Positions 1-17,304 of a stretch of 45,164 bases of DNA are shown piece after piece. This DNA is from Telmatospirillum sp. Its GTDB lineage: Bacteria; Pseudomonadota; Alphaproteobacteria; Rhodospirillales; Magnetospirillaceae. The position numbers and the translations under genes were made by a program. Where the stretch lies: the NCBI GenBank assembly GCA_031291415.1, contig JARLJB010000228.1, positions 1 through 45,164 on the forward strand, read 5' to 3'. Under the pieces are notes generated by a model, which was not told the DNA's origin, searched no databases, and saw nothing but the letters and a program-made list of their open reading frames with translations. The number at the start of each line of letters is the position of its first letter. The stretch's first letter is position 1.

Positions 1-3000
1 GATCAGAACGGAAACTGGAGCGAACCGATCACCACCACGGTCGATAGTACCGGGGATATCATCGGATCGGCGACGGCCGATCTGGCCTCCAAGCTTTACG
101 GTATTCTGGGCGGTAAGAACCTTGTTATCAGCCTGTCGGCCTCGGCCCTGGCGCAGGCGCTGCAGACCCAGGCGTCTTATGCGGCCAAGGGACCGAACGC
201 CGATACGACGTCCAAGGACCCCGGCTTCGCCGTCGATTATATGTCCGCGTTCGCGACGGCGCTCGTCGACGCCGGTCTGAACAGTCTGATTTCCGACATG
301 AAACTGGGGTCGGTCGGGACCGCGGCGGTCAACTCCGTTGCCGACATGCTGATCAACAAGGCGGTCAGCAAGGTGACGTCGGATATCGTCGACGATGGTG
401 TCACCGATGTCTCCAAGCTTCTTTCCGATGCGGCCGAGTCCTACAGTAGTCTCGGCGCTGCCGACTTCGAAAGTCTCGGCGTCAATTTCGCGGTGTCGCA
501 GGTCATCGACGCCATCGCCGGCAATGCGCCCAACGCCCAGGACATCCAGATCGGCCAGGCCATCGGTTCGACGGTGGGGAGCGTCGCCTGCACGATTTGT
601 TCCGCCGAACTCGCCGCTCTTGCGCTGGAAATGGGAGTGACGATAGGGAGCAGCGTATTTCCCGTGATCGGTACCGCCATCGGCGCCATTGTCGGTGCCA
701 TCGCCGGCAGCCTGTTCGGCCCCAGCTCGCCGCCGACCGAGACGGCCAGCGCCTGGTCCGACTGGGACGCGGCCAGCGGCGCTTTCGTGGTGAAGGATGC
801 CTATGGCTACAAGGGCGCCTCGACCGCCAGCTCGATCGCCATGACCCAAGCCGCCGCCCAGCTGGAAAACGAAGTGCTGCCGGTGTTGGGCGGCACGCTG
901 GCCAGCACCGTCAATACCAACTTCGGCTGGTATATGCGTGGCAACAACTTCAAGAACAATTCCTATTTTGACAAGATCGACGAGGATGATTACGAGAACG
1001 GCGCTTTCCATTCCGCCGATTCCTCGGCGGTGATCAATCAGGGCGTGATCCGCGCCATGCAGCGCACCGTGCTGTCGGGCGGCGATCCGATCCAGAAGTA
1101 CGTGCTGGCCCATGCCAATACCAATGTCGATGCGGCATCGGTCGTGAAACTGCAAGGCGATCTGCAGGTGGCGGCCGATTACGGCAACTACCTGACCGAT
1201 CCGGCCCTGGAAGCCGCCGTCGCCGCCGGCAGCACAGAGGGCGGTTCCAAATGGACCACGGAACTGACGCAGGCCGCGCAGTTGGGGGTGACGGCGGCCC
1301 ACGCCGCCGGAGGACAGATCTCCGCCACGGTCAGCGACATCTTCGGGAACCAGCCGACCGACACCGATGGCGATAGTGGATGGAGGTATCGTTACGGCGA
1401 GGCCCTGACCGCCAGTCAGGTGACTGAGACGTTCCAGTCCATCCTGGGGCGGAACCCGTCGGCCGCCGAACTGGAAAGCTGGCAGATTCCGAGCAACGGC
1501 TCGACCGACTATCTTGCCAGCCTGCTGGTCGCTTCCAACGAATTCATCGTCAGGGTCGAGAACACCTATCAGGCGGTGCTCGGCCGCGCGCCTTCCGGGG
1601 ATACGAGTTTCCATTACGACGACCAGGGCAATCCCTATTACGTCAATTCCGGCGAACTGCAGCAAAGCATGCAAGATGTGCTGTCCGGCGGCTCCTTTGC
1701 GGCGGTCGTGGCCGGACTGGTCAAGAGCAGCGAGTTCATCGCGGACGTCAACACGGTCTATCAGACGATCCTCGGCCGCAATGCCGATGCCGACGGTCTG
1801 GCCTATTGGCAGTCCCAGGTGGCCGGCGGTCAGGCGACCTTGTCGTCGCTGTGGACCGGGGCGGCCTCGTCGGCGGAGTTCCAGGCCGACGTCACCGCCG
1901 CCTACGAGGCCGTTCTGGGCAAGGCCCCGACCGCGCTGGAGCTGCAGAACTGGCAGAATAGCGCCGCCGCCGGCGTGCCCTTTGGCGGCTCCTCCGGCGT
2001 GAGCTATGTGCTCGCCCATTCGACCGATTACTCGACCCTGGTTCGGGAACAGTACAAGGGCCTCGTGGACCGGGCGCCGACCGCCGCCGAACTGGCCCGG
2101 GCCATCTCGGCACAGAATATCGGCGTCATCACCCAACAGGTGACGGCGACGCCGGAACACGCCATCGCCGTGTTCACCCAGTCGATCGCCCAACTGGAGA
2201 CCAGCCTTGGCGCCCTGAAGACCCAGGTGTCCACCAGCGTCTCCACCGAGGCCGCCCTGAAAGACTCGGCGACCGCGGCGGCGACCAAGCTGGCCGGCGT
2301 CGCGGCGGCCATCGACAAGGCGAAAGCGGCCATGGCCGCCATGACGCAGCAGGTGGCGGCCGGCGCTTACAACAGCATCGCGGCGTCGAGCGCCGCGGCG
2401 CAACAGGCCAGCGCTGCCGATGCCACCATTGCCAGCACTGTCATGAACGCCATCAAAAGCGCCAGCTACGCCTCCGGCGACCTGGTGCTTTTGCAGCGCA
2501 TCGAAAACAGCGGCGCCACCACGCTGCAGGCGGTGGCCGCCGCCGTCAGCAACGCCGCGAGTTCGGAATACACCAAACTCAACACCCAGGTTCAAATCCT
2601 GCAGCAGCAGGTGGCCTCGGGCGTGGTGCCGACGTCGGCGCCGCCACTCGCGACCCCGGCGGAAACTATCACCGCCGCCTATCACTCTGCGCTCGGCCGC
2701 GACCCCACCGGATCGGAACTGGGCTATTGGGAAAACAAGGTGTCGACAGGTGCCGTCGCCATTGGATCGATTACCAGCCGGATCGGCCCCTATTCACCCG
2801 CCACGATCATCACGGGATATTACCAGACCATTCTGGGGTATGTTCCCGGCGCATCGCAGGTCGCCGACTACGGCGCATGGGTCGACAAGGCGTCCAGCAC
2901 GTCGATGACCGACATCGAGCGTGCTTTCTTCAATCAAGTGACGATGAAGGACCACGGTCAGAACATCACCGCCGAGGTGACGCTGCTGATGAAAGACGCG

Positions 3001-6000
3001 CTCGGCGACGATGCTCCGAGTACGGCGGACATCAATTTCTTCGTCAACCGATACAATTCCGGCGGCATGTCCTGGTCGCGGATCGTCGACATCGCATATG
3101 CCATCGGAGAATCGGCCCCGCTCAACACCACCCTGGTGTCCTATTACAACGATATTCTGGGACGGGCTCCCGATCAGTCCGGGTATGACTGGTGGATCGC
3201 CAAGATCGGCGGCGGCATGTCCATGCTTTCCGTGCAGGCGGGATTCCTCGACAGCCTCCAATTCCACCAGGACTACAGCAGCAGTAACGCCACCCTCGTG
3301 CAAGCTCTTTACAAGTTCGTTCTTGGCGATCTGCAGCCATCGGCGGCCGACGTGCAGTGGTGGGTCAACCAGATCAATGGCGGCATGACCTTCACCACGG
3401 TCGAGGAAAAATTCTACGGATCCCCCGAATACCAACAGAAACATCCCGGTCTGACCGCGGCGCAGATCACCGCGCAGGTGCAGGCCGGTGTGAACACCGG
3501 TCTCGGCGATCCCCTGGTGATCGGGGCGCCGGGTCTTTCGCTGCCGGCGATGACCGGCATCGCGTCGGGGGCGACCTATTTCGACACCGGCAGCGACGGG
3601 CAGAAGGTGCTGACCGGCTGGACGGCCGGCGGATCGGGATTCCTGGTGGCCGACACGGGCGCCGGCGGCATCACCATGCTGTCGCAGATGCTGCCCGACG
3701 CCGCCAATCCAAGCGCCGGAAACACGTTCGCCGCTTTGTCCCAGTATGGGGTGAACGGGCGGATCACCGCCAACGATCCGGGCTACAACCAGGTCGAGGT
3801 CTGGACCGACAGCAACGGCAATGGCCAAGTCGATGCCGGCGAGCTGCACAGCCTCGCCAGCCTGGGTATCGCCTCCATCTCGACGGTGCCCACCGCCGCC
3901 CTGGTCAACGACGCCGGCAACCTGATCACCTTCGAGTCGACCTACACCACGACCTCGGGCCAGACCGGGGTCATCGCCCAGGTAACCCTGCCTTTCGGCG
4001 GACCGCACAGCAGTCCCTCCTTCACCTCGACGGGCAGCAGCTTTACGACGGCCAGCGGTGTCCAGGTGGTCCTGGGCGACGGCGGCCATGACCTGTTGTC
4101 GACCAGCGGTTCCAACATTTTGTTGGACGGCAACGGCGGTTCCAACCTGATCGTCGATAATGGCGGCAACCATAACGACCTTTACGGCGGCAGCGGCGAT
4201 TCGACGCTGATCACCACGGGCAGCTACGATCTTTTGCAGGGGGTCACCGGCAACGATCTGATCAAGGACAACGGCGGTTCCTTCAACGTGCTCGATTCCG
4301 GCACCGGCAGCAGCATCCTGATCACCACCGGTTCCAACGACACCCTGATCGGCCGGGGCGAGCTCGAGATCCTGATCGACAACGGCGGTTCCCGCAATCT
4401 GCTGGTCGACGTGGGAAGCGGCAGCGACTGGCTGATCACCTCGGGCAGCGGCGACACCCTGGTGGCCGGCTCCGGCAACGACATCCTGCTGGATTCCGGT
4501 CATGGCAACACGCTGATCGGCGGGGCTGGCAACGATACCCTGGTCACCAGCGGCAGCGGCGCGCTGTTGATCGGCGGTTCGGGAACCCAGTGGCTGTCGA
4601 CCAGCGGCAGCGGCAATACCCTGGTCGGCGGCTCGGGCAGCGATGTGCTGACCGATGTGGGCGGCAGCCACAACACCCTGGTCGCCGGGGCGGGAACCGA
4701 TACGCTGACCACCAGCGGCAGCCAGGACCTGCTGCTGGGCGGGGCGGGCGCCGATACCCTGATCGACAACGGCGGCAGCTACAACACCTTGGCGGCGGGC
4801 AGCGGCAGCAGCACGCTGATCACCACCGGCAACCACGACATCCTGGTGGGCGGGGCCGGCAGCGCCACGCTCTCCGACAATGGCGGCAGTTACAATACCC
4901 TGATCGGCGGTTCGGGAACCGCGACCCTGACGACCAGCGGCAACCATGACCTGCTGGCGGCCGGCGACGGAACCACGACGCTTGCCGACAATGGCGGCAG
5001 CTTCAATACGCTGCTGGGAGGAGCGGGGGCCGACATCCTGCTCACCAGCGGCAGCCACGATCTTTTGAGCGCCGGCAGCGGGGCCACCACGCTCTCCGAC
5101 AATGGCGGCAGCAACAACACGCTGCTGGGCGGCTCCGGCGCCGACACGCTGATCACCAGCGGCAGTCACGACTTCCTGGTGGCCGGCTCGGGCGACGCCA
5201 CGCTCTCCGACAATGGCGGCAGTTGGAACACGCTCTCGGCCGGCAGCGGCACCGATACCCTGGTTACCAGCGGCGCCAACGATCTGCTGATCGGCGGGAC
5301 GGGGGCGGTGACCCTGGCGGACCAGGGCGGCAGTTCCAACACCCTGGTCGGCGGCGATGGGGCCAGCACCCTGATCACCACCGGCAGTCATGACATTCTG
5401 GTGGCCGGGGCCGGCGCCGCCTCGCTTTCCGATCAGGGCAATGGAGCCAATACGCTGATCGGCGGCACTGGCAGCGCGGTGCTCGCCACCACGGCCAGCG
5501 GCGATCTGCTGATGGCCGGGTCCGGCAATGCCACTCTGTCGGATCTCGGCGGCAACCGGAACACCCTGATCGGCGGCGGCGGGCGGGATACGCTGACCAC
5601 CACCGGCACTCACGACGTCCTGCAGGCCGGCAGCGGCGACGCCACCCTTGCCGACAACGGCGCCGGCTACAATACCCTGGCGGGCGGCGCCGGCAACGAC
5701 CTGCTGGTCACCAGCGGCAGCCACGATCTTTTGAGCGCCGGCAGCGGGGCCACCACACTCTCCGACAATGGCGGCAGCAACAACACGCTGCTGGCCGGAT
5801 CGGGCGCCGACACGCTGATCACCAGCGGCAGCGGTGACCTGTTGCTGGGCGGCGGCGGAACGGCGGTGCTTTCCGACGTCGGCGGCCATGGCAATACGCT
5901 GGCGGCGGGCAGCGGCGCCGCCAGCCTCGCCACCACCGGCTCGCAGGATCTGCTGTTGGGCGGCGCCGGCGCCACCACGCTCTCCGATAACGGCGGCAGC

Positions 6001-9000
6001 CATAACACGCTGGTCGGCGGAGCCGGCACCGCCATACTTTCCACCACGGGCAGCAACGACATCCTGATGGGCGGGACGGGCGATGCGACCCTGTCCGACC
6101 TCGGCGGTCACGGCAACACCCTGGCGGCGGGCGGCGGCACCGACATCTTGATGACCAGCGGTGCCGGCGATCTGCTGGCGGCGGGATCGGGCAGCGCCAC
6201 GCTCTCCGATCTGGGGGGCAGCCACAACACCCTGATCGGTGGGACCGGGACGGCGACATTGACGACCACGGGGTCCGCCGATCTGCTGATCGGCGGTGCC
6301 GGGGCGGCGGTCATCGAGGACAATGGCGGCCAGGGCAACACCCTGGTCGGCGGCAGCGGCGCCAGCACCCTCATCACCTCGGCCGTCGGCGACATGCTGG
6401 CGGCCGGCAGCGGCGACGCGACCCTCACCGACAACGGCGGGCATGGCAACACGTTGATGGGAGGTGTCGGCAAGGACACGCTGTCGACCTCGGGTCACGA
6501 TGACCTTTTGTCGGCCGGCTCCGGCGACACCACCCTGGTCGACAATGGCGGACGCAACAACACTCTCTCGGCCGGCAGCGGCAGCGATACCCTGATCAGC
6601 ACCGGCAGCGGCGATCTGCTGATCGGCGGCTCGGGCTCGGATGCGATCATCGTGACCGGCGATGCCGATACGGTATCGGGCTCCAGCGGCGATTACCGGA
6701 TTACGGTGACCGGCGACGGCGCTTCGGTCACCGTCGGCGACGGCACCGACCAGATCACCGTCACCGGCCACAATGCCTCGGTGAAGGCCGGCAGCGGGCG
6801 GGACACGGTCGCGGTGACCGGTGACGGCGCCAGCGTCACGGTCGGCAGCGGCCGCAGTCAGGTCAGTATTGCCGGCAACGGTGCTTCCGTCACCGCCGGC
6901 AGCGGCACGACCGTCACCCTGACCGGCACCGGCGCCACCGTGGCGATGGGCGACGGCTGGCTGAAGCTGGCCGACAACGGCCAGGCGACGCTGACCGGCA
7001 CCGGCAACCAGGTCGATCTGACGACCGGCGACAGTGTGACGGTGACCGGCTATTCGACCACCGTCTATGCCAAGGGCGCTGGCGACGCGGTCTCCCTGTC
7101 GGGCGGCGGCTCGGTGCAGATGTCGGGCGGCACGCTCACCCTGGCCGACAATGGCGAGGCCATCCTGACCGGCAGCAATGACTCGGTCACGCTGGGGGCG
7201 GGGAATGCCCTCGACGTCACCGGCGCCGGCGAGACCATTACCGCCACCGGAACGGGCGACGGGGTCAATCTGACCGGCACCGGGCATAGCGTGCAGATGG
7301 CAAGCGGTTCTCTGACCCTCTCCGACGGCAGCCAGGCGACGCTGACCGGCGGCAGCAACAGCGTCAGCCTGGGCAACCGGGACAGCCTTTCGGCCAGCGG
7401 TTCGGGCGAGACCGTCGCCGCCTCGGGCACCGGCGATGTCATCGCCTTGTCCGGCGGCAACGATTCCATAGCCATGAGCCAGGGGACCCTGACCCTGTCC
7501 GACGGCGGCCAGGCGGTCCTGAGCGGCAGCGGCGATGCGGTTGCTATTGGCGCCAATGACAGCCTGACGGCATCCGGCTCCTCCGACACCATCGTCGCCG
7601 GTGGTGCCGGCGACGTGGTCGGTCTTTCCGGAAGTGGCGATACGGTGACCATGAGCGGCGGTTCCCTCGGCCTTGCCGACGCGTCCTCCGCCGCGCTTTC
7701 CGGCAGCGGCAACTCGGTCAGCCTGGGCGCCAAGGACGGTCTGTCGGTCGTCGGCGGCAACAACACCATCCTGGCCAGCGGCGCCGGCGATGCCGTCGCC
7801 CTGTCCGGCCAGGGGAATGCCCTGTCCATGAGCGGCGGCAGCCTGACCCTGGCGGATGGAGGTTCGGCCGGCCTGCAGGGCAGCAATGACACGGTAAGCG
7901 TCGGCGGCAACGACATCCTGGCGGTGTCGGGTGGGTCCGACAGCATCTCCGCCAGCGGCAGCGGCGACCAGATCGGTCTTTCCGGCAGCGCTTTCACGGT
8001 GGCGATGAGCCACGGCACTTTGTCGCTGGCCGACGGCGGCTCGGCTGCCCTGACTGGTGACGTCAATGCCGTCGCCTTGGGGGCCAACGACAGCCTCGCC
8101 GCGACCGGTGCTGCCGACAGCATCGTCGCCGGTGGTTCGGGCGACGTGGTGACGCTGTCCGGCAGCGGCGCCGCCATCGCCATGAGCAACGGCGGCCTGA
8201 CCCTGGCCGACAACGGTTCGGCCGGACTGTCGGGCAGCGGCGACCGCGTGACCCTGGGGGCTGGCGATACCCTTGGGGTGAGCGGTGACAACGACAGCAT
8301 CGCCGCCACCGGCAGCGGCGATGCCATCAGCCTGAGCGGCACCGGCCATTCGGTCACCATGACCGGCGGGGCGCTGTCGTTGACCGACAACAGCCAGGCC
8401 ACGCTTTCCGGCAGCAACGACGCCGTCACCGTGGCCAGCGGCGACTCTCTTGCCGTGACCGGCGGCGATAACGTCATCAACGCGTCCGGTTCCGGTGACG
8501 CGGTCAGTCTGACCGGCCGGGGCAACTCGATCGCCATGAGCCAGGGCCGCCTGACCCTGGCCGACAACAGCGGTGCACTGCTGGCCGGCGGCAATGACAG
8601 CGTCGTCCTGGGGGCGAACGACAGCCTCGCGGTATCCGGTTCCACCGATGTGATCAGTGCCGCTGGCACCGGCGATGCCGTCAGTCTGTCCGGTAGCGGC
8701 CATACGGTGGCGATGGGCGGCGGCAGTCTGACCCTGGCCGACAGCAGCGGCGCCGTTCTTGCCGGCGGCGGCGACACCGTCACCCTGGGCGCCCATGACA
8801 GCATCACGGTGACCGGCGCCAACGATGCGATCACCGCCAGCGGGGCCGGCGATGCCGTCACCCTGGATGGGACCGGCCATAGCGTCGCCATGAGCAACGG
8901 CGGCCTGTCGCTGACCGACAACAGCCAGACGAGCCTCGCCGGCAGCGGCGATCTGGTGACGCTCGGCAAGGGCGACAGCCTGTCTGTCAGCGGTTCGAAC

Positions 9001-12000
9001 GACATAATTGCCGCCTCCGCCACCGGCGATGCCGTCAGCCTGTCCGGTAGCGGCCACATGGTGACCATGTCGGGTGGCGCCCTGTCGCTGGCCGACGGAT
9101 CCTCGGCCAGCCTGCTGGGCAGCGGCGACGTGGCGAGCCTGGGGACGGGCGATACTCTCCGTGTAACCGGCAACAATGACGCCATCACCGCCACCGGCAC
9201 GGGCGACGCGGTGTCGCTGACCGGCACCGGCCATACGGTTTCGATGAGCAACGGTAGCCTGTCGCTGGCCGACAACGGCTCGGCAGCGCTTTCCGGCAGC
9301 GGCGATGCCGCGACCATCGGGGCGAACGACGCCCTCAGTGTGACTGGCGGCAATGATACCGTTACCGCCACCGGCAGCGGCGATCAGGTCAGCCTGACCG
9401 GCACCGGCCATACGGTGACGATGACCGGCGGCAGCCTGTCGGTTGCCGATACCGGCGGCGCCAGCCTGTCGGGCAGCAACGACAGCGTCAGCCTGGGGGC
9501 GGGGGCGACCCTTACGGTGACCGGCGCCTCGGACGCCATCGCCGCCGGTGGCGCGGGCGACGTCGTCACCCTGTCGGGCACCGGCCATGGCGTGGCGATG
9601 AGCGGCGGATCGTTGACCCTGGCGGATGCCGGCGGGGCGGCGCTTTCGGGCAGCAACGACAGCGTGGCCCTGGGGGCCGGCGGAACCATCAGCATCACCG
9701 GGTCCTCGAACGCCGTCACCGCCTCGGGCGCCGGCGACACCATCGTGCTGTCGGGCAGCGGCGACACGGTCACCGCCAACGCCGCCACGGTCGGCCTGGT
9801 GGATGGCAGCGACGCCTCGGTCACCGGCAACGGCAACTCCGTGCAGATGGAGACGAAGAGCAGCGTCAAGGTCAAGGGCCAGAACAACACGGTCAGCGCC
9901 GGCGGCGAGGGCGACGCGGTCGATGTCGACGGCACCGCCCTGCTCGCCATGAGCAAGGGCCGCCTGACCCTGGAGCGGGCGGCGCAAGCCACGCTCGCGG
10001 GCAACGCCAACTGGATCGCCATGTCGGTCGGCGCCGCCCTGATGGTGGCCGGATCGGACGAGGTGATCGCCGCCAATGGCGACGGCACCGCCGTGACCGT
10101 CGCCGGCATCGACGAACAGGTGAGCATGGACAACGGCAGCCTGACGGTGACGGACGGCTCCCAGGCGGCGCTGACCGGCGACGGCGACGCGGCGACCTTG
10201 GGCGCCAACGTCAGGCTCAGCGTCACCGGCGCCGCGAACGCCATCACCGCCAAGGGCCTGGGCGACCAGATCACCCTTTCGGGCACCAATGAGACCGTGA
10301 TCATGAACGGCGGCATCCTGGTCCTGGCCGACGACAGCGGGGCCGCGGCCAGCGGCGACGGCAATGTCGTGGGGCTTGGCGCCAATGACGCGCTCCGGGT
10401 CGCCGGCAGCGGCAACAAGATCACTGCCGGCGGCGGCGGCGACAGCGTCGAAATCGACGGGACGCAAAACACCCTGGCGATGACCGCCGGCAATCTGACG
10501 GTCGACGCCGGCGCCGCGGTCACCCTGACCGGCGCCCAGAACAGCGCCGCCATCGGCTCGGGCGGCAGCTTGACGGCCTTCGGCTCGTCCAACCTCATCA
10601 CCGCCACCGGCGCCAACGTCACCCTGGGACTGGCGGGCACCAACGAGACGGTGACCATGGCGGCCGGCAATCTCACCTTGGCCGACAGTGGCCAGGCCAG
10701 CCTGACCGGCGGCGGCAACAGTGTCGTCATCGGGGCCAAGGCCATCCTCGCCGTCAAAGGCGTCGCCAACAAGGTGGCGGCGGCCGGAGCGGGGGCGGCG
10801 GTGTCGGTCGACGGGACCGGCGAACAGGTGGCGATGACCGCCGGTAGCCTCGGTCTCGCCGACAACAGCCAGGCGACGCTGACGGGCAGTGGCGACAGTG
10901 TGACGGTCGGCGGCAACGGCACGCTCGCGGTTACCGGAACCTCGGACCGCGTCACCGCCAGCGGCTCTGGCGACAGCATCGCGGTCACCGGCAGCAACGA
11001 CAGCGTCGTCATGAGCAATGGCGCCCTGTCGCTGGCCGACAACAGCCAGGCGACGCTGACGGGCAGCAACGACAGCGTGACCGTCGGCGCCAATGCCATC
11101 CTGTCGGTGACCGGCGACAACGATGTCATCACGGCGGGCGGCGCCGGCGACCAGATCGCCCTGGCCGGCGTCGGGACCCATGTCGGCATGAGCCACGGGC
11201 GTCTGGTCATGGCCGACAACAGCCAGGCGGCGCTCGCCGGCAGCCAGGATCAGGTGGTTCTGGGGGCCGGTGACAGCCTGTCGGTGACCGGCAACGGCAA
11301 CGCGGTCGCGGCCAGCGGCGCCAATGACACGGTCAGCCTCGACGGCACCGGCAACACGGTGCAGATGAGCAACGGCAGCCTCACCCTGGCCGACAATGCC
11401 CAGGCGACCCTGGTCGGCGGCCAGGACGGCATTTCCCTGGGCCGCAACACCGCGCTGACCCTGGAGGGCAGCGATGAGACCATTACGGTGGCCGGTGCCG
11501 GCGTCAGTCTGGCGCTGTCGGGAACCCATAATACCGTCGCGATGAACAATGGCGCGCTCGGCCTGACCGACTCCAGCCAGGCCAGCCTGACCGGCAACGG
11601 CGACATGGTGGTGGCGGGGACGGCAACCGTCTTCGGCCTGACCGGATTCTCGGATTCGATCTTCGCCGGGACCGGCAGCAAAGTGACCGTGTCCGGCGGC
11701 GGCGATCTGGTCAAGACCAGCGGCAGCGCCGTGTCCCTGGCCGCCAACGGCGGCCTGCTGCTGTCCGGCAACAACGACGCCGTCACCCTGGCGGCCAACG
11801 GTTTGCTGGGACTGACCGGCTTCTCGGACAGCATCATCGCCGGCTATGGCAGCAGCCTCAACATCACCGGTGGCAACGATACGGCGCAACTGAGCGGCGG
11901 CGTTTTCAGCCTGGGAAGCGGCGGCCAGGCCAGCCTCGGCGGATCGCTGAACGCGGTGGTGGCCGGGGCCAACAGCACGTTGGCCGTCACCGGTTCGTCC

Positions 12001-15000
12001 AACAGCATCAGCATGACCGGAACCGGCGGCACCCTGGTGCTGAGCGGCACCGATCAGACGGCGTCCCTCAGCAACGGCACGGTGGTGTTCGCCACCGGCA
12101 GCCAGGTCGGCGTGACCGCCCAGGGCCTGTCCGTGGCGGCGGCCGGCCTCACGGTCAGCGGCGGCAACGACACCCTGATGCTGAACGGCGGCGGGATCAC
12201 GCTGGCCAACAACCTCGCCCTGTCGCTGACCGGCAACGGCAACAGCCTGGCCGGCGGCGCCGGCGACAGCCTCAGCCTCAACGGGGCCAACAATGCGGTG
12301 GCCTTGAGCAACGGCACGCTGACGCTGGCGGCCAACGCCAGCGTCAGCCTCACCGGCAACAACGATCACGTCACCGGCGCCGCCGGCGCCACCGTGCTGG
12401 TGAACGGCCGGAACGACAGTGTCGCCTTGAGCGGCGGCACCGTCGGTCTTGCCGACGGATCCTGGGTCTCGCTCTCGGCGGGCGGAATGTCGGCCTCGGG
12501 CGGCGTGACCGTCGCGGGCGGCAACAACCTGCTGGCGCTGAACAACGGCACCATCACGGGAACCGGCGGCAAGCTCAGCCTGTCGGGCAGCAACGACACC
12601 CTCGATGTGGCCAACGAGACGATCAGTCTGGGCGCCAACAGCAGCGCCATTCTGGCCGGCTATGGCAACAGCCTGACCGCCCAGAGCGGCGACGTGGTGG
12701 TCCTCAGCGGCCAGTCCAACCAGGCCGCCATCAGCAATGGCACGGTGGTTTTCGGCACCGGGTCGCAGGTCGCGGTGACGGCGTCGGGGATGACCGGTTC
12801 CTGGACCGGATTGTCGGTGGCCGGCAGCAACGACGTTCTGATGCTCAACAGTGGCGGCATCACCCTGGCCAATGGAGTCAGCCAAACCGTCACCGGCGAC
12901 TACAACCGCGTCAGCGGCGGCTCCGGCGTTTCGCTGACCGTGAGCGGTGCCTGGGAACAGGCCAGCCTGAGCGGCGCAGCGATCACTTTGGGCAACGACA
13001 CCCAGTTGGCCCTGAACGGGAACAACAACAGCGTTGGCGGCGGCGCGGGCGACAGCGTCACCTTGTCGGGAAGCAACACGACAATCGGCTTCAGCGGCGG
13101 CAACATCGCCATCTACGGTGGCGGCAGCGCCACCGTCACCGGGTCCAACGACAGGGTTTCGGCCTATGCCGACAACGCCCTGACGCTGACCGGTGCCAAC
13201 ACGACGGCGACCATCGATTCGGTTCATGTCACCCTTGGCGACGCCGTCTCGGCGACCGTCGACGGCAGCAACAACACCGTCGCCGGCGGCAGCGGCGACG
13301 CGGTCTCGCTGAACGGCTGGAACAACACCGTCGGCTTCAGCGGCGGCGCTGTGCAAATGACCAGCAACAGCGGCGCCACCGTCACCGGCGACAACACCGC
13401 GGTTACCGGTGGGACCAACGACTTCGTCACCTTGTCGGGCAACCACGACAGCGCCGCCCTGACCGGCGGCACCGTCACCGTCGGCAACTCCGTTCAGGCC
13501 AGCGTCAGCGGCAATGGCAACACCATCCTCGGCGGCAGCGGCGCCACGCTGGCGGTGTCGGGGACCAACGACATCGTCGGCGTCAACAGCGCGACCGTCA
13601 GCGTCGCCGACCATGGCAGCATCGTCCTGACCGGGCGGCATGACACGGTCACGGCCGGTGGTACCGGCTCGGGCGTCAGCGTGATGGTGGCCGGGACCAA
13701 CGACACCGTGGCGGTGAACAATGCGACGGTCGGCCTCTACAACGGCTCGCAGATCAGCGTGACGGCGGCCGGGGCCAGCGTCGCGGCCAGCGGCACCAGC
13801 ATCACCGGGACCAACGATACCCTGGCGGTCGGCAGCGCTTCGGTCAGCCTGGCCGACCATGCGGCGGTGTCGCTGTCGGGCGATTGGAACCGCGTCAGCG
13901 GCGGGACCGGCGACAGCGTGAGCCTGAACGGCGTCGGCAACAGTGTCAGCGCCACCGCCGGCACGATCACCCTGGCCGACAACAGCAGCGTGACGGTGAG
14001 CGGCGCCAACGATCAGGTGACCGGCGGCAGCAATGACGTCGTCAGGTTGAACGGCGGCAACGACAGCGTCACGCTGACCAACGGCGCGGTTTCGCTGGCC
14101 GACACTATTCAGGCGACGGTCACCGGCAGCGGCAACGTGATCACCGGCGGGGCCGGCGATTCCCTGTCGGTCGGCGGCAGCGACCAGATGGTCGGGCTCA
14201 ACAATGCGGCGGTCAGCGTCGCCGACAACAGCAGCGTCACCGTCAGCGGCCGGAACGACACGGTCACCGCCGGGGCCGGCGACAGCCTGACCTTGAACGG
14301 CGGCAACGATCAGGCCAGCATCAGCGGCGGGACGGTCGGTTTCGCCGACGGTACCCAGGTTGCCATGACCGCCGGCGGCATGACGGTCGCCTCCCGCGGC
14401 CTGACGGTGACGGGAACCGGCAATACCCTGGCGCTCGATGACGGCAGGGCGACGTTGGGCTCCAACATGCAGGCCGCGATCAGCGGCGACAACGATCTGA
14501 TCACCGGCGGCACCGGCGACAGCCTGAGCGTGAGCGGCACCGGCGACGACATCGCGCTCGACAATGCCGATATCACGCTGGCCGACGACAGCGAGGCCAG
14601 GCTCTCGGGCAGCGGCAACACGCTGTTCGGCGGCTTCGGCGATACCGTGCTGATGGGCGGCATCAATAACGTCGCCTATCTCAGCCATGGAACGGTGATC
14701 TTCAATGCCGGCACCAAGGTCAATGTCACGGCGACCGGCTTCACGGTGGTGTCCAGCGGCTTGTCGGTGGTCGGCAGCGACAATGTGCTGATGGTCAACA
14801 ACGGCACGGTGAGCCTCAGCGACAATGTCCAGGCCTCGTTGACCGGCAGCAACGACAGCGTCACCGGCGGCATCGGCGACACGCTGGCCCTGACCGGCAG
14901 CGGCGACAGCGTCGGCCTCAGCGGCGGCACCGTGACGCTGGGCGACAATTCCAGCGCGACCGTCACCGGCGCCAACAACGCCATCACCGGCGGCAGCGGC

Positions 15001-17304
15001 GACAGCCTGACGCTGACGGGAAACAACAACAGCGCGGCGTTGAGCAACGGACTCGTCACTCTTGGCAGCAATCTCCATGCCTCGGTCAGCGGCACCGACG
15101 TTACCTTGCGGGGCGGCAGCGGCGACAGCGTGACGGTGGGCGGCGCCAATATCAGCGTTTCGCTCAATTCCGCCTCGGTCATCCTGGCCGACGACAGCAG
15201 CGTCAAGGTGACGGGCCGGAACGACACGATCACCGGCGGGGCGGGTGACAGCCTGACCCTGGGCGGTTCGAACAACACCGCCGTCCTCAGCAATGGCACG
15301 GTGTCCTTCGCCGACGGCAGTCAAGTCGCGGTCACCGCCGCCGGCGTCACCGCGTCGGGCGGTCTGTCGGTCACCGGCAGCAACGACACGCTGGGGCTCA
15401 GCAATGGCCGGGTCAGCCTGGCCAGCAATGTCCAGGCCAGCCTCAGCGGCAATAACGACAGCGTGGTCGGCGGCAGTGGCGACAGCGTCACCCTGTCGGG
15501 CGGCAATTTCGCCGTCGGCCTCAACAACGGCGCGGTTACTCTTGGCGCCAACAGCCAGGCGGCGATCACCGGCAATGGCGTCGCCGTTTCCGGAACCGCA
15601 AGCGACACGGTTGCGGTGGCCGGGACCGCCGACACGGTGACGCTCTCCGGCACCGGCGGGACGGTTTCCCTGCAGGGCACCGGGAACGCGGCCAGCGTCA
15701 ACGGCGCGACGGTCAGCGTCGGCGCCTTCGGCCAGGCCGCCGTCAGCGGTGACGGCAACGCCATCAGCGGCGGCGTCGGCAGCACTCTCGCCGTCGCCGG
15801 CCAGGGCGATACCGTCGCGGTCAGCCTCGGCTCGGTGAGCGTCGCCGACAACAGCGGCGTCACCGTCGCCGGCCATTTCGACAGCGTCACCGCCGGCAGC
15901 GGCGATGCCCTGACCCTGCTGGGGTCGAACAATCAGGCGAGCATCAGCAACGGCACGGTCGGGTTCGCCGCCGGCAGCGCGGTGAACGTCGGCACCAACG
16001 GTCTGTCGGCCTCGAACGGCATGACCGTCACCGGCGTCAACAACACCGTGGCCCTGACCAACGGTTCGGTCAGGCTGGCCGACAACACCCATGCCGGCGT
16101 CACCGGCAGCGGTGACAGCGTGACCGGCGGGACCGGCGACAGCCTGACTCTCGCCGGCAGCAATCAGACGGTTGCTCTCAGCAATGCGACGGTCAGCCTG
16201 GCCGACAACAGCCAGGTCACCGTTACCGGAAGCAAAAACACCGTCACCGGCGGCGTCAATGACGCGGTGACGCTGACCGGCGGCAACAACAGCGCCTCGC
16301 TCACCAACGGCACGGTGAGCCTGGGCAGCAATGTCGCCGCCAGCGTGACCGGCAGCGGTGTCACCGTGACCGGAGGAACCGGCGACAGCCTCAGCCTCGG
16401 CGGTCAAAATCAGGCGGTCGGGCTGAACGGCGCCGCGATCACTCTGGCGGCAAACAGCAGCGTCACCGTCAATGGCGCCGCCAATGCCATCACGGGCGGC
16501 ACCGGCGACGCGCTGACGCTGAACGGCACCGGCAACAGCGCCACCCTGACCGGCGGAACGGTGACCTTGGGCAGCGGCATCCAGGCGACCGTCGGTGGCA
16601 ACGGCAACAGCGTGACCGGTGGCACCGGCGATCATCTGGCGTTGAGCGGCAGCAACGACAGCGTCGCGCTGAATGGCAGCACGGTGACGGTCGCCGACGG
16701 CACCACCACGGCGGTGAGCGGCACCGGCCTTACCGTCCAGGGCAGCAATGCGACGCTCGGCATCGGCGACAACAGCGCCGTCGCCGTCGAGGGCAACAAC
16801 GACACCGTCACCGGCGGGGCAGGCGATAATCTGCTGCTCGGCGGCAGCGGCACTCAGGCGAGCCTGAACGGCGGCAAGGTCAATCTGGCCGACAACAGCA
16901 GCGCCACCGTGACCGGCAACGGCAACCAGGTGATCGGTGGAAGCAACGACGCGGTGATCGCGGTGGGCGGCAACAATATCGTCGCCCTGAACGGCGGGAC
17001 GGTCACGGTGGCCGGATCGGGGCCGGCGGCGGTGACCGGCGACAACAACGCCATCACCGTCGGGGCGGGCGTCACCGCGACGGTGACCGGCGCCAACGAC
17101 AATGTCACGTCAACGGCGCCGACCGGCGGCGTTACCGTCAACGGAACCAATGACACGGTGAACGGCGCCATCTCGACTGACGCATCCTATCTGAACCTGG
17201 TCAACGCCATGTCGGCCTTCGCGCCGGCCGACACCGGCTCGGCCAGTCTGGCGACCACCCAGGTCGACCAGACCCAGACCCTGATCGCGGCCAGCAACCA
17301 TTGA
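1..17304 (+). CDS. Giant secreted repeat protein (DUF4214 + RTX-like/beta-solenoid), 5' end outside window
   Basis: The frame has no stop from base 1 to the TGA at 17302-17304. The ATG at 241 is internal to open coding sequence and has no clear ribosome binding site, so the gene is 5'-truncated by the window. Residues below count from that ATG. A hydrophobic segment (about 115-165) ends in a glycine zipper and holds the only two cysteines I noticed. About ten DUF4214-like motifs (aromatic-x-x-x-LGR-x-P-x-x-x-EL-x-x-W) lie at about 390-1050, split by an Ala-rich helical stretch (about 650-800). An Asp-rich EF-hand-like loop (VWTDSNGNGQVDAGEL) follows at about 1188. From about 1277 to 5620 there are only repeats, in three blocks. 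The last 65 residues are non-repetitive, with LVNAMSAFAP near the end, resembling tails of type I-secreted proteins. I infer a calcium-binding adhesin, matrix or S-layer-like surface protein; toxin activity is possible but unsupported. No secretion genes are in the window. Confidence 0.85.
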   Translation, partial: DQNGNWSEPITTTVDSTGDIIGSATADLASKLYGILGGKNLVISLSASALAQALQTQASYAAKGPNADTTSKDPGFAVDYMSAFATALVDAGLNSLISDMKLGSVGTAAVNSVADMLINKAVSKVTSDIVDDGVTDVSKLLSDAAESYSSLGAADFESLGVNFAVSQVIDAIAGNAPNAQDIQIGQAIGSTVGSVACTICSAELAALALEMGVTIGSSVFPVIGTAIGAIVGAIAGSLFGPSSPPTETASAWSDWDAASGAFVVKDAYGYKGASTASSIAMTQAAAQLENEVLPVLGGTLASTVNTNFGWYMRGNNFKNNSYFDKIDEDDYENGAFHSADSSAVINQGVIRAMQRTVLSGGDPIQKYVLAHANTNVDAASVVKLQGDLQVAADYGNYLTDPALEAAVAAGSTEGGSKWTTELTQAAQLGVTAAHAAGGQISATVSDIFGNQPTDTDGDSGWRYRYGEALTASQVTETFQSILGRNPSAAELESWQIPSNGSTDYLASLLVASNEFIVRVENTYQAVLGRAPSGDTSFHYDDQGNPYYVNSGELQQSMQDVLSGGSFAAVVAGLVKSSEFIADVNTVYQTILGRNADADGLAYWQSQVAGGQATLSSLWTGAASSAEFQADVTAAYEAVLGKAPTALELQNWQNSAAAGVPFGGSSGVSYVLAHSTDYSTLVREQYKGLVDRAPTAAELARAISAQNIGVITQQVTATPEHAIAVFTQSIAQLETSLGALKTQVSTSVSTEAALKDSATAAATKLAGVAAAIDKAKAAMAAMTQQVAAGAYNSIAASSAAAQQASAADATIASTVMNAIKSASYASGDLVLLQRIENSGATTLQAVAAAVSNAASSEYTKLNTQVQILQQQVASGVVPTSAPPLATPAETITAAYHSALGRDPTGSELGYWENKVSTGAVAIGSITSRIGPYSPATIITGYYQTILGYVPGASQVADYGAWVDKASSTSMTDIERAFFNQVTMKDHGQNITAEVTLLMKDALGDDAPSTADINFFVNRYNSGGMSWSRIVDIAYAIGESAPLNTTLVSYYNDILGRAPDQSGYDWWIAKIGGGMSMLSVQAGFLDSLQFHQDYSSSNATLVQALYKFVLGDLQPSAADVQWWVNQINGGMTFTTVEEKFYGSPEYQQKHPGLTAAQITAQVQAGVNTGLGDPLVIGAPGLSLPAMTGIASGATYFDTGSDGQKVLTGWTAGGSGFLVADTGAGGITMLSQMLPDAANPSAGNTFAALSQYGVNGRITANDPGYNQVEVWTDSNGNGQVDAGELHSLASLGIASISTVPTAALVNDAGNLITFESTYTTTSGQTGVIAQVTLPFGGPHSSPSFTSTGSSFTTASGVQVVLGDGGHDLLSTSGSNILLDGNGGSNLIVDNGGNHNDLYGGSGDSTLITTGSYDLLQGVTGNDLIKDNGGSFNVLDSGTGSSILITTGSNDTLIGRGELEILIDNGGSRNLLVDVGSGSDWLITSGSGDTLVAGSGNDILLDSGHGNTLIGGAGNDTLVTSGSGALLIGGSGTQWLSTSGSGNTLVGGSGSDVLTDVGGSHNTLVAGAGTDTLTTSGSQDLLLGGAGADTLIDNGGSYNTLAAGSGSSTLITTGNHDILVGGAGSATLSDNGGSYNTLIGGSGTATLTTSGNHDLLAAGDGTTTLADNGGSFNTLLGGAGADILLTSGSHDLLSAGSGATTLSDNGGSNNTLLGGSGADTLITSGSHDFLVAGSGDATLSDNGGSWNTLSAGSGTDTLVTSGANDLLIGGTGAVTLADQGGSSNTLVGGDGASTLITTGSHDILVAGAGAASLSDQGNGANTLIGGTGSAVLATTASGDLLMAGSGNATLSDLGGNRNTLIGGGGRDTLTTTGTHDVLQAGSGDATLADNGAGYNTLAGGAGNDLLVTSGSHDLLSAGSGATTLSDNGGSNNTLLAGSGADTLITSGSGDLLLGGGGTAVLSDVGGHGNTLAAGSGAASLATTGSQDLLLGGAGATTLSDNGGSHNTLVGGAGTAILSTTGSNDILMGGTGDATLSDLGGHGNTLAAGGGTDILMTSGAGDLLAAGSGSATLSDLGGSHNTLIGGTGTATLTTTGSADLLIGGAGAAVIEDNGGQGNTLVGGSGASTLITSAVGDMLAAGSGDATLTDNGGHGNTLMGGVGKDTLSTSGHDDLLSAGSGDTTLVDNGGRNNTLSAGSGSDTLISTGSGDLLIGGSGSDAIIVTGDADTVSGSSGDYRITVTGDGASVTVGDGTDQITVTGHNASVKAGSGRDTVAVTGDGASVTVGSGRSQVSIAGNGASVTAGSGTTVTLTGTGATVAMGDGWLKLADNGQATLTGTGNQVDLTTGDSVTVTGYSTTVYAKGAGDAVSLSGGGSVQMSGGTLTLADNGEAILTGSNDSVTLGAGNALDVTGAGETITATGTGDGVNLTGTGHSVQMASGSLTLSDGSQATLTGGSNSVSLGNRDSLSASGSGETVAASGTGDVIALSGGNDSIAMSQGTLTLSDGGQAVLSGSGDAVAIGANDSLTASGSSDTIVAGGAGDVVGLSGSGDTVTMSGGSLGLADASSAALSGSGNSVSLGAKDGLSVVGGNNTILASGAGDAVALSGQGNALSMSGGSLTLADGGSAGLQGSNDTVSVGGNDILAVSGGSDSISASGSGDQIGLSGSAFTVAMSHGTLSLADGGSAALTGDVNAVALGANDSLAATGAADSIVAGGSGDVVTLSGSGAAIAMSNGGLTLADNGSAGLSGSGDRVTLGAGDTLGVSGDNDSIAATGSGDAISLSGTGHSVTMTGGALSLTDNSQATLSGSNDAVTVASGDSLAVTGGDNVINASGSGDAVSLTGRGNSIAMSQGRLTLADNSGALLAGGNDSVVLGANDSLAVSGSTDVISAAGTGDAVSLSGSGHTVAMGGGSLTLADSSGAVLAGGGDTVTLGAHDSITVTGANDAITASGAGDAVTLDGTGHSVAMSNGGLSLTDNSQTSLAGSGDLVTLGKGDSLSVSGSNDIIAASATGDAVSLSGSGHMVTMSGGALSLADGSSASLLGSGDVASLGTGDTLRVTGNNDAITATGTGDAVSLTGTGHTVSMSNGSLSLADNGSAALSGSGDAATIGANDALSVTGGNDTVTATGSGDQVSLTGTGHTVTMTGGSLSVADTGGASLSGSNDSVSLGAGATLTVTGASDAIAAGGAGDVVTLSGTGHGVAMSGGSLTLADAGGAALSGSNDSVALGAGGTISITGSSNAVTASGAGDTIVLSGSGDTVTANAATVGLVDGSDASVTGNGNSVQMETKSSVKVKGQNNTVSAGGEGDAVDVDGTALLAMSKGRLTLERAAQATLAGNANWIAMSVGAALMVAGSDEVIAANGDGTAVTVAGIDEQVSMDNGSLTVTDGSQAALTGDGDAATLGANVRLSVTGAANAITAKGLGDQITLSGTNETVIMNGGILVLADDSGAAASGDGNVVGLGANDALRVAGSGNKITAGGGGDSVEIDGTQNTLAMTAGNLTVDAGAAVTLTGAQNSAAIGSGGSLTAFGSSNLITATGANVTLGLAGTNETVTMAAGNLTLADSGQASLTGGGNSVVIGAKAILAVKGVANKVAAAGAGAAVSVDGTGEQVAMTAGSLGLADNSQATLTGSGDSVTVGGNGTLAVTGTSDRVTASGSGDSIAVTGSNDSVVMSNGALSLADNSQATLTGSNDSVTVGANAILSVTGDNDVITAGGAGDQIALAGVGTHVGMSHGRLVMADNSQAALAGSQDQVVLGAGDSLSVTGNGNAVAASGANDTVSLDGTGNTVQMSNGSLTLADNAQATLVGGQDGISLGRNTALTLEGSDETITVAGAGVSLALSGTHNTVAMNNGALGLTDSSQASLTGNGDMVVAGTATVFGLTGFSDSIFAGTGSKVTVSGGGDLVKTSGSAVSLAANGGLLLSGNNDAVTLAANGLLGLTGFSDSIIAGYGSSLNITGGNDTAQLSGGVFSLGSGGQASLGGSLNAVVAGANSTLAVTGSSNSISMTGTGGTLVLSGTDQTASLSNGTVVFATGSQVGVTAQGLSVAAAGLTVSGGNDTLMLNGGGITLANNLALSLTGNGNSLAGGAGDSLSLNGANNAVALSNGTLTLAANASVSLTGNNDHVTGAAGATVLVNGRNDSVALSGGTVGLADGSWVSLSAGGMSASGGVTVAGGNNLLALNNGTITGTGGKLSLSGSNDTLDVANETISLGANSSAILAGYGNSLTAQSGDVVVLSGQSNQAAISNGTVVFGTGSQVAVTASGMTGSWTGLSVAGSNDVLMLNSGGITLANGVSQTVTGDYNRVSGGSGVSLTVSGAWEQASLSGAAITLGNDTQLALNGNNNSVGGGAGDSVTLSGSNTTIGFSGGNIAIYGGGSATVTGSNDRVSAYADNALTLTGANTTATIDSVHVTLGDAVSATVDGSNNTVAGGSGDAVSLNGWNNTVGFSGGAVQMTSNSGATVTGDNTAVTGGTNDFVTLSGNHDSAALTGGTVTVGNSVQASVSGNGNTILGGSGATLAVSGTNDIVGVNSATVSVADHGSIVLTGRHDTVTAGGTGSGVSVMVAGTNDTVAVNNATVGLYNGSQISVTAAGASVAASGTSITGTNDTLAVGSASVSLADHAAVSLSGDWNRVSGGTGDSVSLNGVGNSVSATAGTITLADNSSVTVSGANDQVTGGSNDVVRLNGGNDSVTLTNGAVSLADTIQATVTGSGNVITGGAGDSLSVGGSDQMVGLNNAAVSVADNSSVTVSGRNDTVTAGAGDSLTLNGGNDQASISGGTVGFADGTQVAMTAGGMTVASRGLTVTGTGNTLALDDGRATLGSNMQAAISGDNDLITGGTGDSLSVSGTGDDIALDNADITLADDSEARLSGSGNTLFGGFGDTVLMGGINNVAYLSHGTVIFNAGTKVNVTATGFTVVSSGLSVVGSDNVLMVNNGTVSLSDNVQASLTGSNDSVTGGIGDTLALTGSGDSVGLSGGTVTLGDNSSATVTGANNAITGGSGDSLTLTGNNNSAALSNGLVTLGSNLHASVSGTDVTLRGGSGDSVTVGGANISVSLNSASVILADDSSVKVTGRNDTITGGAGDSLTLGGSNNTAVLSNGTVSFADGSQVAVTAAGVTASGGLSVTGSNDTLGLSNGRVSLASNVQASLSGNNDSVVGGSGDSVTLSGGNFAVGLNNGAVTLGANSQAAITGNGVAVSGTASDTVAVAGTADTVTLSGTGGTVSLQGTGNAASVNGATVSVGAFGQAAVSGDGNAISGGVGSTLAVAGQGDTVAVSLGSVSVADNSGVTVAGHFDSVTAGSGDALTLLGSNNQASISNGTVGFAAGSAVNVGTNGLSASNGMTVTGVNNTVALTNGSVRLADNTHAGVTGSGDSVTGGTGDSLTLAGSNQTVALSNATVSLADNSQVTVTGSKNTVTGGVNDAVTLTGGNNSASLTNGTVSLGSNVAASVTGSGVTVTGGTGDSLSLGGQNQAVGLNGAAITLAANSSVTVNGAANAITGGTGDALTLNGTGNSATLTGGTVTLGSGIQATVGGNGNSVTGGTGDHLALSGSNDSVALNGSTVTVADGTTTAVSGTGLTVQGSNATLGIGDNSAVAVEGNNDTVTGGAGDNLLLGGSGTQASLNGGKVNLADNSSATVTGNGNQVIGGSNDAVIAVGGNNIVALNGGTVTVAGSGPAAVTGDNNAITVGAGVTATVTGANDNVTSTAPTGGVTVNGTNDTVNGAISTDASYLNLVNAMSAFAPADTGSASLATTQVDQTQTLIAASNH
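1417..3410 (+). repeat. Array of about ten DUF4214-like motifs in the giant protein
   Basis: Five motifs (FQSILGRNPSAAELESW, YQAVLGRAPSG, YQTILGRNADADGLAYW, YEAVLGKAPTALELQNW and a degenerate YKGLVDRAPTAAEL) are followed by an Ala/Gln-rich helical region. Five more follow: YHSALGRDPTGSELGYW, YYQTILGYVPG, MKDALGDDAPS, YYNDILGRAPDQSGYDWW and LYKFVLGDLQPSAADVQWW. DUF4214 modules are common in large secreted or S-layer-associated bacterial proteins and are thought to be structural or binding modules. The match is by eye. Confidence 0.7.
5042..5128 (+). repeat. Near-identical internal duplication, copy 1 (partner 5708-5794)
   Basis: These 87 nt match 5708-5794 with a single difference (G at 5091, A at 5757). 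Other units in the block have diverged at many synonymous sites, so this pair marks a recent in-phase duplication or gene conversion. Confidence 0.85.
5708..5794 (+). repeat. Near-identical internal duplication, copy 2 (partner 5042-5128)
   Basis: Second copy, offset by 666 nt, which is six 111-nt units. The flanks diverge immediately outside the matched segment. Confidence 0.85.
7081..12060 (+). repeat. Repeat block 2: 59-residue (177-nt) beta-solenoid-like units
   Basis: About 28 units follow the pattern GDxVxLSGxGHxVxMSxGxL, TLADNxxAxLxGxxDxVxLG, ANDxLxVTGxxDxIxAxGS, i.e. three coils of 18-21 residues. I counted 59 residues in several consecutive units and 58 in one. Nucleotide segments starting at 10861 and 11038 are nearly the same and lie 177 nt apart. 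The conserved small residues and Asp/Asn turns suggest a right-handed parallel beta-solenoid; this is an inference. Confidence 0.75.
12060..17100 (+). repeat. Repeat block 3: 41-residue (123-nt) units with nine GSQV-type interruptions
   Basis: Units run GDSLTLxGxNxxxALSNGxV then TLxxNxxAxVSGxxxxxxGGS. Unit starts at 14998, 15121 and 15244 are exactly 123 nt apart. At irregular intervals a different coil pair appears, with pattern TVxFxxGSQVxVTAxGh followed by GLxVxGxNDTLxLxNG. I see nine of these, near 12075, 12433, 12736, 13719, 14329, 14688, 15292, 15950 and 16678. Confidence 0.75.

What the first reader, a model, noticed from the sequence alone, without database searches (positions are those of the whole stretch)
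1..17304. Secreted-type protein of at least 5,767 codons, open at the window edge
The reading frame is uninterrupted from base 1 to 17304, so the gene is larger than it looks from the first ATG at 241. It combines a glycine-zipper segment, about ten DUF4214 motifs, an EF-hand-like loop and some 4,300 residues of repeats. If each coil of about 20 residues rises about 0.48 nm, as in known beta-solenoids, the repeat part alone would be about 100 nm long (inference).
Basis: partly seen in the sequence, partly recalled or inferred. Interest (0 to 1): 0.8.

Follow-up and report, generated by a model that had tools for sequence, protein, structure and literature searches.

The report
Giant secreted-type protein with self-cutting-like domain
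A bacterium carries a gene, cut off at the edge of the assembled DNA, for a probably secreted protein of more than 5,700 amino acids that looks like a long stalk joined to a head by a domain related to one that, in other proteins, cuts itself and glues itself to neighbouring proteins.

Summary
The open frame is real: stop-free and coding from base 1 to the TGA at 17304 (at least 5,767 codons, about 549 kDa). Base 1 is the contig's own end, so the start is lost. A repeat-assembly artefact is unlikely: no exact direct repeat reaches 50 bases, and the repeat units compared diverge about twice as fast at silent as at replacement sites. It keeps the scissile Asp-Pro pair (D1170-P1171) and both core tryptophans but only one of four calcium loops. 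About 4,350 residues of 37-, 59- and 41-residue repeats follow; a 246-residue piece is predicted all-beta. The last 59 residues match C-termini of RTX-type proteins. No secretion genes were found beside it, but four relatives lie beside type I secretion genes, one a Pantoea plasmid protein with the same order (module, solenoid, C-terminus). Best reading: a type I-exported extracellular stalk with a joint that may cut and cross-link. New variant of a known kind; whether the eroded joint works is open.

The parts
1..17304 (+). Giant ORF, at least 5,767 codons, 5' end missing at the contig edge; stop TGA 17302-17304
571..723 (+). Hydrophobic glycine-zipper segment, aa 191-241, the only region over Kyte-Doolittle 1.6 (19-residue windows) in the protein
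634..1305 (+). Glycine zipper plus following region, aa 212-435, 27% identical to the C-terminal part of a prophage tape-measure protein in a same-family genome
1408..3435 (+). DUF4214 region, aa 470-1145, with several degenerate copies
3493..4035 (+). Self-processing-module (SPM) fold, aa 1165-1345
3508..3513 (+). D1170-P1171, equivalent of the scissile D414-P415 of FrpC
3808..3843 (+). Calcium loop aa 1270-1281 (site 4), the only one of four SPM calcium sites still complete
4033..6570 (+). Gly/Asp-rich RTX-like repeats, regular 37-aa unit from aa 1561 (two sub-repeats of 18-19 aa)
6571..12870 (+). DUF3060-type repeats with a 59-aa unit, aa about 2190-4290 (boundaries approximate)
12871..17100 (+). 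Repeats with a 41-aa unit, aa about 4290-5700; a 246-aa piece modelled as an all-beta repeat fold
17125..17301 (+). C-terminal 59 aa shared with the C-termini of RTX-type proteins; putative type I secretion signal

Best explanation
The gene encodes a type I-secreted extracellular giant. It is exported unfolded, C-terminus first (established for type I secretion in general; inferred here), and folds outside the cell into (a) a head of at least 1,170 residues with a glycine-zipper segment and DUF4214 copies, (b) an SPM-fold joint, and (c) a long beta-solenoid stalk of about 4,350 residues ending in the secretion signal. The joint keeps the Asp-Pro pair, so after folding outside the cell it may cut between D1170 and P1171 and leave a reactive aspartyl on the head that can link to lysines on nearby cells or matrix; if not, it is a calcium-stiffened hinge. 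Likely role: adhesin or matrix/surface fibre. Shown: the frame, the domain homologies, the predicted folds of the SPM and of part of the solenoid, the C-terminal homology. Inferred: export of this protein, stalk length, cutting/linking, adhesion.
For: SPM by sequence and by predicted fold (pLDDT 85.5; 6sjx E 5.8e-11, TM 0.75). Asp-Pro pair and both core Trp kept. C-terminal match in 10 other genomes of 297 searched (11 with the own), each match ending 0-5 aa before a stop. Four relatives beside type I secretion genes: G017 (HlyB 976 bits and HlyD 379 bits, both over the curated cut-offs), Pantoea sp. JZ2, Burkholderia ambifaria MC40-6, Rhizobium sp. NXC14 (annotated; 3 hits opened of the 88 plasmid records). 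The Pantoea protein has an SPM-like domain, a match to the window's solenoid and the C-terminal match. Own genome has RTX-type HlyB and HlyD genes. A repeat piece is all-beta, block pLDDT 88 or more over the first 130 of 246 residues. dN/dS about 0.5 between repeat units.
Against: No secretion gene found beside it; N-terminus missing. The own-genome paralogue L071 has no secretion gene among the four ORFs tested upstream and no C-terminal match, its frame stopping 98 bases from the contig end. Rhizobium's C-terminus did not match and Burkholderia's only at 8.9 bits. Three of four SPM calcium sites are lost and the D579 equivalent is Gln; D579A abolished and D579N spared cleavage in FrpC (PMC7078468). 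Foldseek gave no PDB match at E <= 0.001 for the solenoid, and that model has low confidence from about residue 151 on. No function was found for DUF4214 or DUF3060.
Confidence: 0.62

Rival explanations
1. The SPM is a fossil: the protein is exported and forms a stalk as in the best explanation, but the eroded module only folds and never cuts or links.
For: Sites 1-3 eroded and D579 replaced by Gln. Across 28 aligned SPM-like domains of the order only 11 keep Asp-Pro, so many members seem to have kept the fold without the scissile pair.
Against: The window and the own-genome paralogue L071 both keep Asp-Pro although the other rows most like the window (35-38% identical: L032, L033, L031, L039) have Y-P, S-P, D-A and S-P.
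Confidence: 0.55
2. A toxin-like RTX protein whose glycine-zipper segment inserts into membranes, the repeats serving only export and folding.
For: Hydrophobic glycine-zipper; hydrophobic stretches also precede the SPM in L074, L072 and L129 and lie in the gene upstream of the Pantoea protein.
Against: One short hydrophobic region in 5,767 residues; none over the threshold before the SPM in L071, L073, L077 or L128; no Pfam match to a pore-forming domain.
Confidence: 0.12
3. An autotransporter or two-partner-secretion type beta-helix rather than a type I substrate.
For: Weak NCBIfam match of the repeats to AIDA-I (22 bits against a cut-off of 1200).
Against: No beta-barrel or transporter domain reported at the C-terminus; the NCBIfam match to RTX_toxin is stronger (52 bits, also below its cut-off of 1000); the C-terminus matches RTX-type C-termini.
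Confidence: 0.04
4. Assembly artefact or decayed gene.
For: Fragmented assembly (412 contigs), 5' end lost, several other giant genes end at contig ends.
Against: No exact direct repeat of 50 bases or more, dN/dS about 0.5, strong third-position G+C in the frame.
Confidence: 0.03

Closest known systems
FrpC of Neisseria meningitidis and ApxIVA (SPM-bearing RTX proteins; PMC7078468)
   Same: SPM fold with an Asp-Pro pair at the junction of an N-terminal part and a repeat part; type I-secreted class
   Different: More than three times the length of FrpC (1,829 aa per PMC3034196); one instead of four complete calcium sites; D579 replaced; DUF3060-type repeats instead of tandem RTX nonapeptides; DUF4214 head
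Pantoea sp. JZ2 plasmid pJZ2-02 protein WP_324030750.1 (1,721 aa)
   Same: SPM-like domain, match to the window's solenoid, matching C-terminus; next to type I ATPase, HlyD and TolC genes
   Different: About a third of the length; its annotated start lies at the first residues of the module, so the Asp-Pro pair is not seen there; a separate 821-aa gene lies just upstream
Own-genome paralogue on contig C217 (L071, 4,269 codons from its first ATG)
   Same: SPM with Asp-Pro followed by thousands of residues of DUF3060-type repeats
   Different: Different N-terminal part without DUF4214 hits; SPM keeps calcium sites 3 and 4; frame stops 98 bases from the contig end without the C-terminal match
Giant RTX adhesins such as MpAFP (1.5 MDa) and the 5,047-residue Aeromonas hydrophila adhesin (search listing and abstract starts only)
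   Same: Size class, type I secretion, long extender region
   Different: MpAFP's extender repeat is an Ig-like domain, not a beta-solenoid; no SPM is mentioned in the abstract starts that I saw

Membership tests
FrpC-type self-processing module | Homology and fold of the module | tested here: met
FrpC-type self-processing module | Scissile Asp-Pro at the module's N-terminus | tested here: met
   D1170-P1171; kept in 11 of 28 aligned rows, and in B. ambifaria and Rhizobium NXC14
FrpC-type self-processing module | Core tryptophan pair W451/W519 | tested here: met
   invariant in 28 of 28 rows
FrpC-type self-processing module | Four EF-hand-like calcium sites | tested here: not met
   only site 4 complete; ligand counts 0, 1, 2, 4 of 4 for sites 1-4
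FrpC-type self-processing module | D478 and D579 near the cut site | tested here: inconclusive
   D478 kept, D579 is Gln; at 579 Asn tolerated and Ala not, per PMC7078468
FrpC-type self-processing module | Ca2+-dependent cutting and isopeptide linking | not testable with these tools
   needs purified protein
RTX proteins | Tandem GGxGxDxUx nonapeptides | tested here: not met
   9 strict matches, none 9 residues apart; Pfam HemolysinCabind 23.1 bits against a cut-off of 23.0; NCBIfam RTX_toxin 52 bits, cut-off 1000
Type I secretion substrates | C-terminal signal shared with other substrates | tested here: met
   by homology only
Type I secretion substrates | Linked HlyB/HlyD/TolC genes | tested here: inconclusive
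   none among the adjacent genes scanned, to base 29607, and no HlyB or HlyD match listed on contig C33 (for HlyB 77 of 173 candidates were scored); upstream lost; TolC not searched in the own genome; present beside four relatives
LapA-type tethered adhesins | N-terminal retention module | not testable with these tools
   N-terminus beyond the contig edge

The most novel reading that the evidence does not exclude
A naturally pared-down clip-and-link module that works with a single calcium loop, releasing and covalently anchoring a head of over 1,170 residues from a stalk of about 100 nm: a covalent anchoring device in alphaproteobacteria near Rhodospirillaceae, within a recurring module-solenoid-signal architecture.
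Probability: 0.2. Interest if true: 0.72.

Novelty: new variant of a known kind. Interest (0 to 1): 0.47.

Why it matters
In the papers I saw, SPM cutting is reported for few proteins: FrpC and ApxIVA (PMC7078468), and FrpA and the Alysiella and Kingella homologues (PMC12538545, section 7). Here SPM-like domains appear in 39 of 297 genomes of the window's order, with large natural variation in the Asp-Pro pair and the calcium sites, which makes testable which parts of the machine are essential. The window's version, with Asp-Pro kept and three calcium sites gone, is a sharp test case. It also gives DUF3060-type repeats, named in only one paper of the held library, a setting: the stalk of giant proteins of the type I-exported kind.

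Tried and rejected
ATG 241 as start: rejected, codon use upstream is coding. The 4,613-codon antisense frame at 2794-16635: treated as a shadow of codon use; the sense frame has no TTA or CTA and two TCA codons. Finding the lost 5' end: the first 27 bases occur only once in the genome; other contig ends hold fragments of giant repeat genes and type I secretion genes (C295, C212, C218), but nothing ties one of them to this gene. Relatives in named genomes with aa 1-1350: none. Viral contigs with aa 171-470: none. Foldseek of the solenoid: nothing at E <= 0.001. A first solenoid alignment (A3) only aligned identical overlapping stretches and was dropped for A4 (9 rows). SPM rows: 28 of the 31 sequences in hand were aligned (window, L071, L031-L056); L057, L058 and L059 were left out as short or divergent, and matches without loci were not read. 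dN/dS used 17 adjacent pairs of 37-aa units and 15 of 59-aa units (aa 2353 to about 3296 only); in one of these 32 pairs dN exceeded dS; 41-aa units were not tested. The SPM and C-terminal HMMs contain the window and several of the relatives they were run on; independent of the training rows are L127, L128 and L129 (SPM) and L072b, L127, L128 and L077 (C-terminus). L077 matched the C-terminal HMM only internally (11.7 bits at 1767-1797, not at its end) and L129 not at all. Fetched but not analysed beyond an ORF list or one scan: L078-L084.

Full report
OBSERVATION. The frame is open from base 1 to the TGA at 17302-17304, 5,767 codons, about 549 kDa. In 50 shuffles of the same bases the longest stop-free frame was 490 codons. 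The window is the left end of a 98,048-base contig, C33, of a 7.14-Mb genome in 412 contigs (contig length), so the frame is cut by the assembly, not only by the window. Bases 1-240 score as coding in this frame and in no other.

NOT AN ARTEFACT, PROBABLY. In spite of its repeats the gene holds no exact direct repeat of 50 bases or more. Neighbouring 37- and 59-residue units have mean dN 0.40 and 0.44 against median dS 0.88 and 0.80 (17 and 15 pairs, dN above dS in one of the 32), as expected for a protein kept by selection. The long antisense frame (2794-16635) follows from codon choice: no TTA or CTA and only two TCA codons in the sense frame.

ANATOMY. Aa 191-241 is a hydrophobic glycine-zipper. 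Aa 470-1145 holds degenerate DUF4214 copies (Pfam 118 bits, 3 stretches significant on their own; 11 candidate stretches with a home-made HMM, 5 of them clear). Aa 1165-1345 is the surprise: a phmmer match to the self-processing module of FrpC (6sjw, 4e-13). An AlphaFold model from 28 homologous rows (pLDDT 85.5) matches the solved module at E 5.8e-11, TM 0.75; the only other match at E <= 0.001 is the second entry of the same protein. Aa about 1345-5700 is repeats in three regimes with units of 37, 59 and 41 residues, with 1 Pro and 57 Lys/Arg in aa 1401-5700. Pfam calls DUF3060 in them, 107 and 134 bits in two pieces. A 246-residue piece models as an all-beta repeat with strands every 8-9 residues, confident over its first 130 residues or so, without a PDB match at E <= 0.001. 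The last 59 residues match the C-termini of RTX-type proteins.

SELF-PROCESSING MODULE IN DETAIL. PMC7078468 (abstract and outline, parts 1 and 2 of 3 of Results, part 1 of 2 of Discussion) describes the mechanism: Ca2+-driven folding strains the D414-P415 bond, which breaks through an aspartic anhydride that lysines can capture. It has lost sites 1, 2 and 3 (0, 1 and 2 of 4 ligand positions) and has Gln for D579. Of 28 aligned rows 11 keep Asp-Pro; the two tryptophans are invariant; site 4 is complete in 27. Activity therefore cannot be called from sequence.

EXPORT. The C-terminal 60 residues find 11 of 297 genomes of the order, own genome included. In the 10 others the match ends 0-5 residues before a stop codon, and most have RTX-like sequence just upstream, judged by eye. 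I looked at the neighbours of five SPM proteins. Four lie next to type I secretion genes: G017 (HlyB 976 bits, HlyD 379 bits, over the curated cut-offs), Pantoea sp. JZ2, Burkholderia ambifaria MC40-6 and Rhizobium sp. NXC14 (annotated). The fifth, the own-genome paralogue L071, has none among the four ORFs tested upstream. On G120's contig an HlyB gene (1,020 bits) lies within about 8 kb of an SPM match in a 7,940-codon frame; what lies between was not read. The Pantoea protein, found with the window's solenoid as query (E 3e-7), also carries an SPM-like domain (93 bits) and the C-terminal match (50 bits), so the order module, solenoid, signal exists in small form beside ATPase, HlyD and TolC genes; its annotated start lies at the module's first residues, so no Asp-Pro is seen there. 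The own genome has two HlyB over the curated cut-off, a third at 617 bits, and five HlyD over the cut-off. None is listed on this contig; the adjacent genes scanned are mostly sugar transport and metabolism.

ORGANISM. A same-family genome (G007) has a contig identical to one of an uncultured Rhodospirillaceae MAG, isolate AlinenLipids_bin-2225, so the window probably comes from an alphaproteobacterium near Rhodospirillaceae (inference). SPM-like domains occur in 39 of 297 genomes of the order, DUF3060 in 11 of 297, the window having the longest open frame among the matches listed.

FUNCTION. Best reading: a type I-exported extracellular fibre, with a head, a joint able or once able to cut and link, and a stalk of about 85-130 nm (inference: 16-25 residues per coil, 0.48 nm rise). 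Against an active joint: the eroded calcium sites and Gln at 579. For it: Asp-Pro kept both here and in the paralogue on C217, although four of the five rows most like the window's module lack it.

NOVELTY. FrpC-type modules in other RTX proteins are in print (PMC3034196, passages; PMC7078468). The searches (one held library) showed no title or abstract start describing an SPM joined to DUF3060 or DUF4214; only three of the listed papers were opened, each in part. Hence a new variant of a known kind.

Noticed in passing
window aa 212-435 (nt 634-1305) and L075 (G007:C151): The glycine-zipper region of the giant is 27% identical to the C-terminal part of a prophage tape-measure protein (Pfam TMP_2); an SPM protein of the same genome (L074) is 26% identical to it over 144 aa. 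A module perhaps shared between phage tail tape measures and secreted giants.
   Followed up: partly
G000:C217 (L071: 98-12907, - strand): A second giant in the same genome: 4,269 codons from its first ATG, SPM with Asp-Pro after a Gly/Asp-rich linker, then DUF3060-type repeats; the frame stops 98 bases from the contig end.
   Followed up: partly
G000 contig ends C295 (right), C218 (left) and contig C232: Further giant repeat genes with other repeat types (GINDAGQ-type repeats after HlyB/HlyD on C295; ALTTAQV-type repeats on C218 and C232), some cut by contig ends: the genome seems rich in type I-linked giants.
   Followed up: no
L074 (G007:C451, 2133-7745, - strand): A large serine recombinase (Pfam Resolvase and Recombinase) and an SPM-repeat protein lie in one open frame of 1,870 codons; insertion into the gene or an assembly chimera.
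   Followed up: no
G120:C111 about 29719; L078 13857-16385, - strand: An SPM-like domain inside an open frame of 7,940 codons, larger than the window's; an HlyB-type ATPase gene (1,020 bits) lies on the same contig.
   Followed up: partly
G003:C53 (L077, 3472-18903, - strand): A same-genus 5,143-codon SPM protein whose N-terminus resembles a phage-type lysozyme by eye; no Pfam match at 0.001 supports this.
   Followed up: partly
L076 (G017:C16, 5096-8757): GINDxGQ-type repeats with DUF4214 in one frame, and solenoid-type repeats with the matching C-terminus in a second frame about 0.9 kb downstream; possibly one split gene.
   Followed up: no
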